In this document: one piece after another, positions 28,774 to 40,523 of the stretch
Layout of the letters: each line of letters starts with the position of its first letter
How positions within the stretch are numbered: position 1 is the first letter of the stretch
Source of the DNA: Pseudomonadaceae bacterium
Lineage (GTDB): Bacteria; Pseudomonadota; Gammaproteobacteria; Pseudomonadales; Azotimanducaceae
NCBI GenBank assembly: GCA_024743175.1
Contig: JANSXA010000002.1
Coordinates: forward strand, 1-64,000
Direction: 5' to 3'
Length of the DNA: 64,000 bases
The notes under the pieces: model-generated
Seen by the model: the letters and a program-made list of their open reading frames with translations, nothing else
Database searches by the model: none
What the model was told of the DNA's origin: nothing
Program-made: the position numbers and the translations under genes

Positions 28774-29844
28774 ATGCGACTTTTTTTAGCCCCAATGGAA
28801 GGTGTCATCGATCACCATTTCCGCACCCTCTATAGTGAGATTGGCGGCGTGGATATCTGTGTCAGCGAATTCATAAGAGTCAACGATCTTCCCACGCCGG
28901 CAAAAACACTGTTGCGCGAGTGTCCTGAGCTTGCGTTTAGCAACCCCGATATCGGGCAATACAGCGTGACCACCGGTGGCATACCTCTGCGCATCCAATT
29001 GTTGGGCAGCAATCCGGAAACATTGTCGAGCACCGCACAAACTGCAGCACGGCTGGGCGCCAGCGCAATAGATTTAAATTTTGGTTGCCCCGCTAAAACG
29101 GTGAACAACAGCAAAGGAGGTTCAGTTCTGCTCAAACAGCCGGATCTCGTCAATCACATTGTCGCAGCAGTTCGCAACGCGGTGCCTGAAGACATACCGG
29201 TGACAGCAAAAATTCGCCTCGGCTTTGAAGACCGCAGCCTTTATCTTGACAACGCGCTGGCTATCGCCGCGGCAGGCGCAGACGAATTATGTGTACATGC
29301 ACGGTCTCGAGCAGACGGCTACAACCCACCTGCCTACTGGGCATACATAGCCCACATCGTTGAGCAGGTAGACATCCCGGTGATTGCCAATGGTGAAATA
29401 TGGAGCGTACAGGACTGGGCACGTTGCAAAGAAGAGAGCCAGTGTAACGATTTCATGATGGGGCGCGGCCTGATTGCCTGCCCGGACCTGGCTTTGCAGA
29501 TAAAAGCCTGCGCCGCAGGCGAGACCTATCAGCCTCTGCAATGGTCACAGGTGCTGACGCTGCTGGAAAGATTCTACCGCGCCACCAGGGATGCTTATCC
29601 AAAACGTTTCTTAGGCAATCGTTTGAAACAGTGGCTGTTTTACCTGCAGATGCACTACCCGGAAGCTCAGGTGTTTTTTCAAACGATCAAGCGCTTTAAG
29701 CACGCCTACGAGTTTGAAGCGGCTTTTACTTCGGTCCCCAGATCTCTGCAAGCCGTTGATCTCGACCACAACCCCAACGATAGGCTGCATAGCGCAACGG
29801 ATTTTTCTTATAAAAATCCTGATGCCCGATTTCAGCGCCTTTAA
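28774..29844 (+). CDS. dusC: tRNA-dihydrouridine synthase C
   Basis: The FMN-dependent enzyme reduces uridine 16 of tRNA. The first residues RLFLAPMEGVIDHHFRTLYSEIG and the following SEFIRVND are the DusC form of the family. NFGCPAKTVNNSKGGSVLL carries the catalytic cysteine, and AKIRLGFED and ARSRADGYNPPAYW follow. At 356 residues it is about 40 longer than typical DusC. The extra C-terminal part is encoded across the 3' end of msrA on the other strand (119-bp overlap), so the tail may be an extension gained by loss of an earlier stop. Confidence 0.9.
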   Translation: MRLFLAPMEGVIDHHFRTLYSEIGGVDICVSEFIRVNDLPTPAKTLLRECPELAFSNPDIGQYSVTTGGIPLRIQLLGSNPETLSSTAQTAARLGASAIDLNFGCPAKTVNNSKGGSVLLKQPDLVNHIVAAVRNAVPEDIPVTAKIRLGFEDRSLYLDNALAIAAAGADELCVHARSRADGYNPPAYWAYIAHIVEQVDIPVIANGEIWSVQDWARCKEESQCNDFMMGRGLIACPDLALQIKACAAGETYQPLQWSQVLTLLERFYRATRDAYPKRFLGNRLKQWLFYLQMHYPEAQVFFQTIKRFKHAYEFEAAFTSVPRSLQAVDLDHNPNDRLHSATDFSYKNPDARFQRL

Positions 29845-30307
29845 TTGGATAAAACGTCGCTGCAGGGAGTATGGGGGTTACCACCGTCTGATCGGGAAAA
29901 CGCTCAACAACCGCCTGCCTGGTTTTTTCAGCAACCGCTCTTTCTGCCTCGTTAGCGACAAAAATAGCACTCAGGTAACTCGGACCTTTGTCGCAGAACT
30001 GACCTTGCGCATCAAACGGATCAATGTTGATCCAGAAGTGATTAAGGATGTCTTCATAACTTAAAACGTCTGGATCATAGGTGATTTCAACTGCTTCGTA
30101 GTGACCGGTATGGTCGCCCCGGTAAGTCGGGTTCTTCGCCGTGCCGCCAGTAAAACCGGAGATAACATCCGTTACACCTTCCAGTTCCTCAAAGTCTTTT
30201 TCCATGCACCAGAAACATCCTCCAGCCAGAACTGCGTTTTCCGCCAGGGCGAAAGGTGAAAAAGCTGCGCTGATGATAAAGACAAGGCAGGCTACGTGTT
30301 TAGACAT
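29726..30307 (-). CDS. msrA: Peptide-methionine (S)-S-oxide reductase, exported
   Basis: The protein has 193 residues. A signal peptide (about 1-22, ending ALAE) is followed by the MsrA active site GGCFWCM with catalytic C31, then GFTGGTAKNPTYR and HYEAVEITYDPD. The protein ends EIWGPK, the usual end. It repairs methionine sulfoxide and is probably periplasmic here. It converges with dusC and overlaps it by 119 bp. The interrupted GST gene lies 6 bp upstream on the same strand. The active-site residue is cysteine, not selenocysteine. Confidence 0.93.
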   Translation of the reverse strand: MSKHVACLVFIISAAFSPFALAENAVLAGGCFWCMEKDFEELEGVTDVISGFTGGTAKNPTYRGDHTGHYEAVEITYDPDVLSYEDILNHFWINIDPFDAQGQFCDKGPSYLSAIFVANEAERAVAEKTRQAVVERFPDQTVVTPILPAATFYPIKGAEIGHQDFYKKNPLRYAAYRWGCGRDQRLAEIWGPK

Positions 30308-36990: not shown

Positions 36991-38544
36991 TCACACGTCT
37001 TTTATCAGATGATTGGCGCCTGCCTGAGTGACATAAGCTGCAGCGAGGCGCTCACCGCTACTGCGTTCAACAACACTGTCTACAAACCAGAATTCTCCTC
37101 GCGTGCGTTCAGCATCAATATCCAGTAACAGATAACCATGGTCACGCAGGTTCACATAATGAATATGCGGGCGTGTATCCATGACCACCTGCTCTCGTTC
37201 TGCCAGCGATTGCGCATCACCTTGGGGACCCGGTGACGTTACCGAAGTAGTTACAAATTCAACCGCAAGCGAACCTCGCCCCGTCGCCGGGTCATAAGCC
37301 TCACCTAAAGGTTCCGGGGTAATGTCCATGGCCCATGCCGTATGAATATCACCCGTCAGCACAACCAGGTTGTCAATGGACTCCGCAGACAGTTGCTCGA
37401 GAATGGCTGCACGCGATGCGGGATAGCCATCCCATTGATCTGTATTCAGCATCACACCATCATCACCGAGCAGCTGGGCAAACATGAGCTGCTGGCCGAG
37501 CAGACGCCAGGTAATACCATGGCGTTTCGAGGCGCGCAGCTGCTCCGCGAGCCAGGCCTGTTGATCAACACCTAAAATTGTACGGCTTGTATCAGCAAGC
37601 CCTGCCGTATCTTTCGGATCATCCAGCTGTTGGCTACGCCCATGCAGGCGCGTGTCCAGCATAATCAGATCAGCCAGCTCGCCAAAACGAAAACTGCGAT
37701 AGATAAAAGGTCCGTTTGCAGAGGGCTGTTCCCGTATAGGCAGCCATTCGTGGTACGCACGGATAGCCACCGCGCGCCGAGTAGCCCAGTCTCCTTCACC
37801 GAGTTCGGGATTATGATTCTGTGCACCATCACGCCAGCTGTTGTTGGTACTTTCGTGATCATCCCAGACGCAGATCCAGGGATGCGCACGATGAGCCGCC
37901 TGTAGATCAGGATCTGTCTTATATTGTGCGTGCCGGATTCGGTAATCCTCGAGCGTGACCACTTCATGAGCAGGTTCATGCACACGCCCGAACTCTTCGC
38001 CATTACCATATTCGTTTGGCGCGTACTCATAAAAGTAATCACCCAGATGCAGTACGGCATTCAGGTCAGTGCGTTCAGCAATACGGCCATACGCATTAAA
38101 ATAACCAAACGGATAGTTTGAACAGCTGACCACGGCGAGCTTCAGACGGGTCACATCCTGTTCCGGCAGCGTTCTGGTCCGGCCGGTGGCGCTTTGCTGA
38201 CCGTCTGCTTCAAACCGGTAATAGTAAGTGTGTCCCGGGCTTAAACCGAGAGCATCCACCTTCACGGTGTGATCTCTTTCCGGCAAAGCGGTGACCACAC
38301 CCTGATTCACTATGTCAGCCAACGCTGGATCGGTGGCGATGATCCAGCGCACCGCCATCACCTTGTCTGTTGCACCACTGATTCTGGTCCAGAGAATCAC
38401 CCGGTCCGCGAGTGGATCTCCGCTCGCAACACCATGTTGAAACCGGCTGGTGGCTTCCGATGCAGTCACCGCACCAGCCACTTGATTGCCTGCAACAGCG
38501 CCGGCAGCGGCACTGCTCGCCAGAAATGTTCTACGTGTCACCAT
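36991..38544 (-). CDS. phoD: Alkaline phosphatase D family protein (Tat-exported)
   Basis: The protein has 517 residues. A Tat signal (TRRTFLASSAAAGAVAG) is followed by an N-terminal FN3-like PhoD_N domain (FQHGVASGDPLADRVILWTRISG). The metal phosphoesterase domain comes after it, with LGDYFYEYAP, WDDHESTNNSWRDG and VVLTGDIHTAWAMD. It is a Ca/Fe-type phosphodiesterase/phosphatase that supplies phosphate in the periplasm. It starts 8 bp after the selenoprotein gene on the same strand and is likely co-transcribed with it. Confidence 0.9.
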   Translation of the reverse strand: MVTRRTFLASSAAAGAVAGNQVAGAVTASEATSRFQHGVASGDPLADRVILWTRISGATDKVMAVRWIIATDPALADIVNQGVVTALPERDHTVKVDALGLSPGHTYYYRFEADGQQSATGRTRTLPEQDVTRLKLAVVSCSNYPFGYFNAYGRIAERTDLNAVLHLGDYFYEYAPNEYGNGEEFGRVHEPAHEVVTLEDYRIRHAQYKTDPDLQAAHRAHPWICVWDDHESTNNSWRDGAQNHNPELGEGDWATRRAVAIRAYHEWLPIREQPSANGPFIYRSFRFGELADLIMLDTRLHGRSQQLDDPKDTAGLADTSRTILGVDQQAWLAEQLRASKRHGITWRLLGQQLMFAQLLGDDGVMLNTDQWDGYPASRAAILEQLSAESIDNLVVLTGDIHTAWAMDITPEPLGEAYDPATGRGSLAVEFVTTSVTSPGPQGDAQSLAEREQVVMDTRPHIHYVNLRDHGYLLLDIDAERTRGEFWFVDSVVERSSGERLAAAYVTQAGANHLIKDV

Positions 38545-38552
38545 CAGTTTTG

Positions 38553-39092
38553 CTAACTCCCAGCATCAATGGCGCAGAATTTAGATTCCAGATCCAGCAC
38601 CATCAGTAATCGGCCGAAGCCGATGAATTGGCCAATCATCATCCCGAGCTCGAGAATCTGTTCATCACTGAACTTCTCGCGCAGGCGATCGAAAAATGCA
38701 TCATCCATATTGTGATGGTCCAGTGCCATGCGATCGGCATACTCCAGGGCCAGACGTTCAACCTCACTGAATGAGTTTGTTGGCCCATCAAGCTGCGCTA
38801 TCTTTTCTTCTGTCAATCCGTGTTCTGCACCCTGCAGAAGCCGTGCATTCAGTCACGTAAAACAGTCGTTATGACGCGCTATTTTCAGGCGTACCAGCTC
38901 AATCAGCTCTTCAGGAATTGAAGTACCCGCCCGGGCTGGCAGGTAAAATTTGAAGTAATTGTCAAACAGCGCCTGACTGTGTGCCAGACCACGCATCGTC
39001 GATGAGTCAGCACCGCTGGCCTCGATAGCCTGTACCGCTGCCAGAGCATGGGGCTCCAGTTCATGATCCTGTTTCAGAGTGATCCGTGCCAT
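38553..39092 (-). CDS. Probable selenoprotein: carboxymuconolactone decarboxylase/AhpD-like with CxxU motif
   Basis: The 180-codon frame is broken only by TGA at 38855-38853 (codon 80); a conventional reading gives two fragments, 79 aa from ATG 39092 and a downstream piece. With read-through it is a normal 179-residue CMD-fold protein. Residues around LIELVRLKIARHNDCFT-U-LNARLL fit the AhpD-type redox helix. In cysteine homologues that site reads CxxC, so Sec falls exactly on the second cysteine (C77-F-T-U80). The rest (SEVERLALEYADRMALDHHNMDDAFF, MMIGQFIGFGRLLMVL) is intact. A SECIS-like hairpin follows. It lies 8 bp before phoD. The selABCD machinery is not in the window. Alternative: a TGT/TGC to TGA mutation. 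Confidence 0.82.
38823..38839 (-). promoter_or_regulatory. Candidate bacterial SECIS element
   Basis: In the mRNA a perfect 7-bp stem UUCUGCA/UGCAGAA closes a GGG loop. The UGA ends 20 nt before the first loop G, within the distance known for bacterial SECIS elements, which need a guanine at the start of the loop. The upper stem and loop (UGCA-GGG-UGCA) closely resemble the E. coli fdhF element (UGCA-GGUC-UGCA). It should be bound by SelB to insert selenocysteine at codon 80. Confidence 0.75.
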
Positions 39093-39146: not shown

Positions 39147-40523
39147 TCAAATTTCTGCGGGCGGCGCCTCTTCAGGAACCTCGGTTTCAGCACCATCACC
39201 CAGCCATCTGTCCATCAGCTTGGCGGCCACTACATCACCCGCCACATTCACCGAGGTTCTGCACATATCGAGAATTCGATCAACGCCCATGATCAGTGCA
39301 ACACCTTCCGGCGGTATACCTACCGCAGAAAGCACGGTAGCCAGGATGACAATGCCCACACCGGGTGTACCCGGAGAGCCTACGGCTGCACCCACAGCCA
39401 TGGCGACAACAAGCAGCATGCCACCAAAACCGATGTCCACGGCGTAAACCTGTGCAAGGAACATGGCAGCCACACCCTGATAAAGGGCCGTGCCATTCAT
39501 GTTGATGGTTGCGCCCAGGGGAATAACAAACTGAGCAATCGAGGGGCGCACACCGAGCTGCTCCTCAGCGGTGCGAATGGATAGCGGCATGACCGATGCT
39601 GAACTGGAGGTGGAAAAAGCCAGCAGCAAAAGCTCACGCACCGACTGCAGGAAGGCCAATGGCTTTTCACCAGCAAACACAAATAGAAGCGTGAGGTAAA
39701 GTACAAACACACCCAGCAGGCCCAATAAAACGGTCACTGCGTAAAAGGACACCCCCAGCAGTGCTTCCAAGCCGATCTGACTGGTGAGGCGCGCCATCAA
39801 ACCGAATACCGCAATTGGCGCAACCAGCATGGCCCACTTCACAACGGTCATGCAGACCTGTTGCAGGGATTCCAGCAGATCGAGCAGGGGTTTGGATTGT
39901 TGTGGCGGCATGGATACCAGCGCAACACCAACAATCACACCAAAAATCACAATCTGCAGCATGTCGCCCTGGGCCATGGAATTCAAAGGATTACCGGGTA
40001 ACAGCCCGATCAACGCCGTCGGCAGCTCCGACGCGTTAGGAATAGCCATGGTTTCTACGCCTGCCTCAGCATGGGTCGCTGACGCTTGCAGGCTACCTGC
40101 CAGGCTTCGACCGGGTTGCAGCAGTGCGGCCAGCCCTAACCCGAAGAACGCAGCAACACCGGTCGTTGCCACGAAATAAGCGCTGGCGCGAAGACCGAGT
40201 TTACGCAGTTGATCCACGTTTTCACTGGCCGCCAGACCACGGATCACAGACGCAATCACCAGCGGCACCACAATCATTTGTATCACCGCCAGAAAAAGCT
40301 GACCCGGCAGCGCTAACCAGTTACCAATCAGGTTGCCGGTATCCTGATCAACCCACCCCACCGTCGGCCCGATCAGAAACCCCAGCAACAGCCCGGCAAA
40401 CATACCGATCAGCACTTTCAGCCACAGGCGCGTTTCCACCAGAGTGGCGAGATGACTGCTGAGATGCTTCAGTGAGGTTGGGTGTAATGCCGACAGATAG
40501 CGAAAGGGAAAGCCATTAGCCAT
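39147..40523 (-). CDS. Dicarboxylate/amino acid:cation symporter (DAACS family)
   Basis: This 458-residue inner-membrane transporter resembles GltP/DctA. It has eight membrane helices and two re-entrant loops. The serine-rich motif FSTSSSASVMPLSIRTAEE marks HP1. The TM7 site is IPLGATINMNGTALYQG (NMDGT-type), and VGSPGTPGVGIVILATVLSAVGIPPEGVALIMGVDRILDM marks HP2/TM8. It imports dicarboxylates or acidic amino acids with Na+ or H+. It lies 54 bp upstream of the selenoprotein gene on the same strand. Confidence 0.9.
   Translation of the reverse strand: MANGFPFRYLSALHPTSLKHLSSHLATLVETRLWLKVLIGMFAGLLLGFLIGPTVGWVDQDTGNLIGNWLALPGQLFLAVIQMIVVPLVIASVIRGLAASENVDQLRKLGLRASAYFVATTGVAAFFGLGLAALLQPGRSLAGSLQASATHAEAGVETMAIPNASELPTALIGLLPGNPLNSMAQGDMLQIVIFGVIVGVALVSMPPQQSKPLLDLLESLQQVCMTVVKWAMLVAPIAVFGLMARLTSQIGLEALLGVSFYAVTVLLGLLGVFVLYLTLLFVFAGEKPLAFLQSVRELLLLAFSTSSSASVMPLSIRTAEEQLGVRPSIAQFVIPLGATINMNGTALYQGVAAMFLAQVYAVDIGFGGMLLVVAMAVGAAVGSPGTPGVGIVILATVLSAVGIPPEGVALIMGVDRILDMCRTSVNVAGDVVAAKLMDRWLGDGAETEVPEEAPPAEI

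What the first reader, a model, noticed from the sequence alone, without database searches (positions are those of the whole stretch)
38553..39092. TGA falls exactly on the second cysteine of a CMD/AhpD-like redox motif: likely selenoprotein
Seen: two ORF pieces in the same frame, separated only by TGA at codon 80, form one complete 179-residue CMD-fold protein. The TGA sits in C77-F-T-U80 where homologues have CxxC. Established: bacterial selenoproteins often replace a redox cysteine with Sec; AhpD-like selenoproteins have, as I recall, been reported from marine metagenomes. Inference: this strain makes selenocysteine and uses this protein as a CxxU thiol redox enzyme.
Basis: partly seen in the sequence, partly recalled or inferred. 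Interest (0 to 1): 0.93.

Follow-up and report, generated by a model that had tools for sequence, protein, structure and literature searches.

The report
AhpD-like selenoprotein with CxxU motif
A gene that looks broken by a stop codon almost certainly encodes one whole redox protein, because this bacterium has the machinery to read that stop as the rare amino acid selenocysteine; proteins of this kind have been reported from the sea since 2005.

Summary
On the minus strand (39092..38553) one 179-residue frame is interrupted only by TGA at codon 80 (38855..38853), second position of a C-F-T-U motif. The genome has tRNA-Sec, SelA, SelB and SelD and a second in-frame-TGA protein of a curated selenoprotein family, NF041238. 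Relatives of 62-86% identity from 38 other genomes all have TGA here (39 of 39 genes with the window's); of 27 distant relatives (at most 44% identity) 26 have Cys. Codons after the TGA are under protein-level constraint. A hairpin with its loop 19-20 nt after the UGA is in 35 of 35 distinct sequences, though its energy is weak in the window. SelA is in 34 of 39 TGA genomes and 2 of 27 genomes of distant relatives. AhpD-like (COG2128) CxxU selenoproteins were reported in 2005 and 2008, so this is a new member of a known kind. It lies in a group in which only Sec was found, apparently below every NCBIfam cut-off (inferred), with Arg84 where AhpD has its relay His. Substrate untested.

The parts
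38553..39092 (-). AhpD-like selenoprotein gene, 179 aa with Sec80, ATG at 39092, TAG at 38555..38553
   Evidence: homologues
38853..38855 (-). TGA codon 80, read as selenocysteine (second position of CxxU)
   Evidence: TGA in 39 of 39 distinct close genes; Cys codon in 26 of 27 distant ones
38862..38864 (-). TGT codon 77, partner Cys of CxxU
   Evidence: Cys in 52 of 52 aligned rows
38823..38839 (-). SECIS-like hairpin: 7-bp stem, GGG loop at 38832..38830, 20 nt after the UGA
   Evidence: against: isolated stem only -6.6 kcal/mol, 51-nt region z -1.05
36991..38544 (-). downstream neighbour, PhoD-like phosphatase (context only)
39147..40523 (-). upstream neighbour, sodium:dicarboxylate symporter family; ends at an ordinary TGA stop (context only)

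Best explanation
The gene encodes a single-domain AhpD-like (carboxymuconolactone decarboxylase superfamily) thiol/selenol oxidoreductase. Its UGA codon 80 is decoded as selenocysteine by the cell's SelA-SelB-SelC-SelD machinery, directed by a stem-loop whose G-containing loop lies 20 nt downstream. In the folded protein Cys77 and Sec80 form a CxxU redox pair, with invariant Glu65 and Arg68 and conserved Arg84 in the same motif. Most likely Sec80 attacks a small oxidised substrate (a peroxide or similar electrophile), forms a selenenyl-sulfide with Cys77, and is reset by a cellular thiol. Shown: frame, conservation, machinery, a second in-frame-TGA protein of a selenoprotein family in the same genome. 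Inferred: Sec insertion itself, the role of the hairpin, selenenyl-sulfide chemistry, substrate.
For: Frame and TGA. tRNA-Sec 71.7 bits over the Rfam cut-off of 47, TCA anticodon by ARAGORN; SelA 518.9 and SelB 424.7 bits over NCBIfam cut-offs, next to selC; SelD 270.9 bits over cut-off in a 732-aa frame. 39 of 39 close genes TGA, 26 of 27 distant genes Cys. SelA in 34 of 39 TGA genomes and 2 of 27 genomes of distant relatives, Fisher p 3.7e-11. Hairpin at 19-20 nt in 35 of 35 distinct sequences, three of eight pairs with changes on both sides. Constraint on the protein after the TGA. Second protein with CFYU, NF041238, 447.5 bits against a cut-off of 175. Fold like peroxidase-related AhpD-core structures. 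Glu65, Arg68, Cys77 and Cys/Sec80 in 52 of 52 rows.
Against: The hairpin alone is -6.6 kcal/mol in the window, short of the -7.5 limit of the published model; 14 of 35 distinct sequences pass it. The 51-nt region folds only 1.05 sd below shuffles, and its minimum-energy structure is a different one. Two of five covariation measures do not beat shuffling, and related sequences can beat shuffles without structure. Five of 39 TGA genomes show no SelA, no SelB over cut-off and no tRNA-Sec over cut-off. One of these, G413, has a SelB-like piece below cut-off at a contig edge, and G405, G411, G413 and G423 carry relatives of the second protein with one TGA inside (TGA position not checked), so gaps in the assemblies are likely, but G410 has no such support. 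tRNA-Sec and SelB were not sought in most TGA genomes. The AhpD relay His is Arg84 here, so AhpD-type peroxidase activity is not assured. No conserved operon partner beside the window's gene.
Confidence: 0.9

Rival explanations
1. The TGA is a real stop: a pseudogene, or a sequencing or assembly error at one codon.
For: With TGA as a stop the mechanical frame list shows only an 87-aa piece (limit 80 aa). Five TGA genomes show no SelA.
Against: The same codon is TGA in 38 other genomes; codons after it are under protein-level constraint; full Sec machinery in the genome.
Confidence: 0.02
2. UGA is read through or reassigned to another amino acid (for example Trp) instead of Sec.
For: In-frame UGA with conserved flanks would look the same at the DNA level.
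Against: The site aligns with a redox Cys in 26 of 27 distant relatives, with Trp in none; selA-selB-selC and a second CxxU protein are present. The neighbouring symporter gene ends at a TGA just after its domain (39149..39147), so UGA is an ordinary stop too.
Confidence: 0.02
3. It is a selenoprotein, but not a peroxidase: for instance a reductive dehalogenase like Bmp8, or a reductant of protein disulfides.
For: The CMD-fold debrominase Bmp8 is among the sequence and fold matches (6ohi E 1.5e-7; 6ohj fold E 3.0e-4). Both relay His of AhpD are replaced in 34 of 34 Sec rows. A dienelactone hydrolase-like gene lies 2-98 nt upstream in 7 of 39 fetched loci and about 290-350 nt downstream in 3 more (Pfam DLH tested on one member), which would fit an organic substrate.
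Against: Bmp8 is not the closest match: rank 11 of 13 by sequence, rank 26 by fold. The window's own neighbours are a PhoD phosphatase and a dicarboxylate symporter. No result points to halogenated substrates.
Confidence: 0.15

Closest known systems
AhpD-like (1) selenoprotein family (COG2128, CxxU; Sargasso Sea 2005, PMC1088965; GOS 2008, PMC2398784)
   Same: AhpD-like protein with CxxU, Cys homologues widespread, stem-loop like bacterial SECIS elements downstream of the TGA (passages)
   Different: COG2128 membership could not be scored here; whether the 27 and 299 published sequences include this group was not tested, since they are not held
NCBIfam NF053654 GroundWater_YciW, YciW-related (seleno)protein
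   Same: best curated model; 52 of 52 family rows match at E<=1e-3
   Different: 63.1 bits against a cut-off of 310 for the window's protein
NCBIfam TIGR01926 peroxidase-related enzyme
   Same: nearly full-length match, E 3.3e-6; the 2026 review files the AhpD-like CxxU selenoprotein here (PMC13188914, passages)
   Different: 27 bits against a cut-off of 81.8
NCBIfam NF041238 AhpD_rel_CFYUT
   Same: AhpD-related (seleno)protein with CFYU, present in the same genome
   Different: 375-aa protein; only a 26-residue local match to the window's protein, E 0.008
AhpD of M. tuberculosis and PA0269 of P. aeruginosa (PMC3141380, passages)
   Same: Glu 12 residues before the first Cys, two redox residues spaced CxxC; PA0269 is among the best sequence and fold matches
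   Different: Sec for the second Cys; Arg84 where AhpD has His137 and PA0269 His55; Thr79 where AhpD has His132 and PA0269 Tyr50

Membership tests
Bacterial selenoprotein | in-frame TGA aligned with a conserved redox Cys of homologues | tested here: met
   39 of 39 close genes TGA, 26 of 27 distant genes Cys
Bacterial selenoprotein | selA, selB, selC, selD in the genome | tested here: met
Bacterial selenoprotein | Sec shown in the protein | not testable with these tools
   needs 75Se labelling or mass spectrometry
Bacterial SECIS model as given in PMC13188914 (legend passage) | 3-9 nt loop, 4-16 bp upper stem, G in the first two loop positions, 16-37 nt from UGA | tested here: met
   window: 7 bp, GGG loop, 20 nt; 35 of 35 distinct sequences give such a hairpin at 19-20 nt
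Bacterial SECIS model as given in PMC13188914 (legend passage) | minimum free energy at or below -7.5 kcal/mol | tested here: inconclusive
   isolated hairpin -6.6 in the window, 14 of 35 distinct sequences pass; 51-nt region -11.8 in another structure, centroid with the hairpin -11.4
AhpD-like (COG2128) selenoprotein | CxxU motif in an AhpD/CMD-fold protein | tested here: met
AhpD-like (COG2128) selenoprotein | match to COG2128 | not testable with these tools
   no COG/CDD library; proxies TIGR01926 and NF053654 match below cut-off
NF053654 GroundWater_YciW | score over the curated cut-off (310 bits) | tested here: not met
   63.1 bits
TIGR01926 peroxidase-related enzyme | score over the curated cut-off (81.8 bits) | tested here: not met
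   27 bits
Canonical AhpD | five-residue proton relay Glu, Cys, His, Cys, His (PMC3141380, passages) | tested here: not met
   Glu65 and Cys77 present and Sec80 for the second Cys; Thr79 and Arg84 in place of the two His in 34 of 34 Sec rows
Canonical AhpD | peroxidase or AhpC-reducing activity | not testable with these tools
   biochemistry needed

The most novel reading that the evidence does not exclude
A Sec-only group of the AhpD fold, without the relay His, that has left peroxide chemistry and uses the selenol for another electrophile, for example reductive dehalogenation or reduction of an aromatic ring-cleavage product beside a dienelactone hydrolase. It would parallel the way the CMD-fold debrominase Bmp8 has been compared with the selenoenzyme deiodinase (that comparison is recalled; the search for it found no such paper).
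Probability: 0.08. Interest if true: 0.65.

Novelty: new member of a known kind. Interest (0 to 1): 0.33.

Why it matters
Annotation that takes TGA as a stop would split or drop this gene, so a redox protein conserved across at least 39 genomes, whose records are mostly titled Pseudomonadales or Gammaproteobacteria, can go unseen. As far as the E-values tell, no NCBIfam model reaches its cut-off on any of the 52 family rows (inferred), so the group merits a curated model. Selenocysteine looks fixed in it: no Cys form was found between 44% and 86% identity, which makes it a fair test of what Sec adds that Cys cannot. I saw no tested substrate for AhpD-like selenoproteins in the passages read.

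Tried and rejected
Rfam and ARAGORN on the window: no hits; the sel genes lie on another contig. Pfam on the protein: nothing at E 0.001. SelW/Rdx in the own genome: none at E 0.001. Gene neighbourhood as a guide to function: with frames of 80 aa or more, TGA as stop, no gene cluster was shared by more than 10 of 40 regions (39 loci and the window), and several clusters were pieces of the gene itself or of its reverse strand; only the dienelactone hydrolase cluster (10 loci) was followed, and the window's region has no member of it. Tree of 52 rows: the 34 Sec rows lie together, but three Cys rows on very long branches (L035, L036, L039) fall among them, so one origin of Sec is likely but not shown (2 changes, 10% of 200 bootstrap trees with 1). 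Single-sequence energy test of the hairpin: not significant; comparative evidence was used instead. Cys-type control: 1 of 26 passed the energy limit (L036, -8.7) and L038 came close (-7.2), both with the loop at 19 nt, so such a hairpin can arise by chance. L018 (G299) has Tyr at the site and a TAG in the frame; it is counted among the 27 distant loci, but was not in the 26-row hairpin control nor in alignment A2. L038 has a second, weaker row with Ala at both positions, not counted. Alignment A2 holds 34 of the 39 TGA genes and 18 of the 27 distant ones. The genome-contig scan needs exact short peptides, so diverged relatives, Cys or Sec, can have been missed; in the order-wide search 146 of 390 genomes matched, only the best 30 loci were fetched, and 3 of these are TGA type.

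Paper searches: searches gave useful listings; one search gave 0 papers, 63 and 72 only unrelated ones. All six papers cited were seen as passages found by search terms; none was read in full.

Full report
What is there. Read on the minus strand, 39092..38553 gives one frame from ATG to TAG, 179 residues, with a single TGA at codon 80, 38855..38853. With TGA as a stop, the frame list at its 80-aa limit shows only an 87-aa downstream piece. The motif is R-H-N-D-C77-F-T-U80-L-N-A-R84. Frame 1 of the opposite strand is not open.

Relatives. A pattern scan of genome contigs with six peptides from both halves of the protein gave 40 relatives in 39 loci. A search of 390 genomes of the same order matched 146, of which the best 30 loci were fetched. 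In one search, 42 rows (the own locus at 99% identity, the rest at 62-86%) have TGA at codon 80. Without three repeats (L011=L055, L012=L060, L077 with L073) they are 39 genes in 39 genomes, the window's own included. Of the other 27 fetched loci, at 44% identity or less, 26 have a Cys codon at the site and one (L018) has Tyr with a TAG in the frame. No Cys form was found inside the close group. The frame after the TGA is under protein-level constraint: against five relatives, codons 81-175 show 33-41 synonymous and 13-17 amino-acid-changing differences, much like codons 1-79 (28-39 and 12-20).

Machinery. The window's genome (G000, 4.72 Mb, 98% complete) has tRNA-Sec at C7:279356-279444, 71.7 bits over a cut-off of 47, anticodon TCA by ARAGORN. 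SelA (TIGR00474, 518.9 bits, cut-off 267.9) and SelB (TIGR00475, 424.7 bits, cut-off 242.25) lie directly upstream in the order selA-selB-selC. SelD matches at C7:290569-291483 (270.9 bits, cut-off 125) in a 732-aa frame whose N-terminal part looks by eye like an NADH dehydrogenase. The same genome encodes a second protein with an in-frame TGA, C13:39876-41000 minus, 375 aa, CFYU with U at residue 249, which scores 447.5 bits against a cut-off of 175 in NF041238, alkylhydroperoxidase-related (seleno)protein. UGA is an ordinary stop as well: the symporter gene upstream ends at TGA, 39149..39147.

Co-occurrence. SelA (PF03841) was sought in 68 genomes: 34 of the 39 TGA genomes have it, 2 of the 27 genomes of distant relatives, and 2 of 2 same-genus genomes in which the protein was not found; Fisher p 3.7e-11 for the first two groups. 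The five TGA genomes without SelA are G405, G410, G411, G413 and G423. None has SelB over the cut-off or tRNA-Sec over the cut-off. G413 has a SelB-like piece (202 bits, positions 105-578) at a contig edge, and G405, G411, G413 and G423 carry relatives of the second protein with one TGA inside (where the TGA falls was not checked), so gaps in these assemblies are the likeliest reason; G410 has no such support.

SECIS. In the 42 nt after the UGA, aligned without gaps for 39 genes (35 distinct), a hairpin of 6-8 bp with a G-containing loop of 3-5 nt sits 19-20 nt after the UGA in 35 of 35. The geometry fits the consensus quoted in PMC13188914 (legend passage). Pairs 15-29 (UA 25, CG 10), 19-25 (CG 31, UA 4) and 13-31 (CG 12, UA 4, unpaired 19) change on both sides; 89.6% of cells pair, against 83.9% in shuffles and 33-61% when slid. 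Pair 15-29 joins the third position of a Leu codon to the second position of a Glu/Gly codon. Against this: two of five measures do not exceed shuffles, the isolated hairpin in the window has -6.6 kcal/mol and 14 of 35 reach -7.5, and the single-sequence fold is unremarkable (z -1.05). Of 26 Cys-type genes 1 passes the energy limit.

Fold and active site. AlphaFold2 on 52 rows (34 of the 39 Sec genes, 18 Cys genes; C written for U) gave an all-helical model, mean pLDDT 85.8. Among the PDB matches are AhpD-core and peroxidase-related proteins (2prr, 3c1l, 6k40, 2pfx) and PA0269 (2ijc, 2o4d). Glu65, Arg68, Cys77 and Cys/Sec80 are in 52 of 52 rows; Arg84 in 34 of 34 Sec and 17 of 18 Cys rows. In AhpD the relay is Glu118, Cys130, His132, Cys133, His137, and the two Cys and the last His are called invariant in the AhpD-like structures compared (PMC3141380, passages). 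Here Glu65 fits Glu118 by its distance of 12 residues, but the two His are Thr79 and Arg84. A selenol is deprotonated at neutral pH (general knowledge), so less need for a relay is plausible; but the Cys relatives lack that last His too, so Sec is not the cause. I infer a CxxU cycle: Sec80 attacks, a selenenyl-sulfide forms with Cys77, a thiol reduces it.

What is known. The Sargasso Sea study listed 27 AhpD-like sequences, COG2128, CxxU (PMC1088965, passages); the GOS study listed AhpD-like 1, COG2128, CxxU, 299 sequences in 37 samples, and AhpD-like 2 (PMC2398784, passages); a 2006 survey names AhpD-like (COG2128) (PMC1794560, passages); reviews of 2022 and 2026 carry the family (PMC9312934 and PMC13188914, passages). 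So the kind is known. For the window's protein the two NCBIfam matches are far below cut-off. For the other 51 rows only the best E-values were shown (9.3e-21 for NF053654, 1.1e-13 for TIGR01926); from the window protein's E-values and bits I infer about 75 and 52 bits, still below 310 and 81.8.

Context. The window's neighbours are a PhoD-like phosphatase and a symporter of the sodium:dicarboxylate family. Neighbourhoods differ among relatives; a dienelactone hydrolase-like gene (PF01738, tested on one member) lies 2-98 nt upstream in 7 of 39 fetched loci and about 290-350 nt downstream in 3 more.

Verdict. Observation confirmed, interpretation supported, novelty modest: a new member, in a group where only the Sec form was found, of a selenoprotein family known since 2005.

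Noticed in passing
G000:C13:39876-41000 minus (L092:1877-3001): A second in-frame-TGA protein in the same genome, NF041238 AhpD_rel_CFYUT, 375 aa with CAYC near the N-terminus and CFYU at 249. Relatives at E<=1e-20 in 27 of 45 genomes searched; 47 of 50 match rows hold one TGA, 3 hold none, one of these (G390:C41) nearly full length.
   Followed up: partly
G000:C7:279355-288720 (L079, L093): A phage-like island seems to lie between selC and a metX-like gene: tape-measure-like and integrase-like frames (named by eye) and a 22-nt copy of the tRNA-Sec 3' end at about C7:288697, as if the element had inserted at selC.
   Followed up: partly
G000:C7:290569-291483 minus (L080, L093): The SelD frame carries an N-terminal part that looks by eye like an NADH dehydrogenase, and CGGC without Sec, as PMC2398784 says of Ndh-SelD fusions.
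   Followed up: no
L046, L047, L048, L050, L052, L059, L065: A dienelactone hydrolase-like gene 2-98 nt upstream of the selenoprotein on the same strand, possibly one operon in these lineages.
   Followed up: partly
window 29726..30307 minus: A frame that looks by eye like methionine sulfoxide reductase A with GCFWC, the Cys form of an enzyme that is a selenoprotein in some organisms (the last point recalled).
   Followed up: no
G179, G200: Two genomes of the same genus have SelA and tRNA-Sec but no match to this protein at E 0.001, so its presence looks patchy within the genus, or the drafts have gaps there.
   Followed up: no
G298, G280: Two genomes with SelA, SelB and tRNA-Sec whose best relative of this protein is a CxxC form of 36-37% identity.
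   Followed up: no
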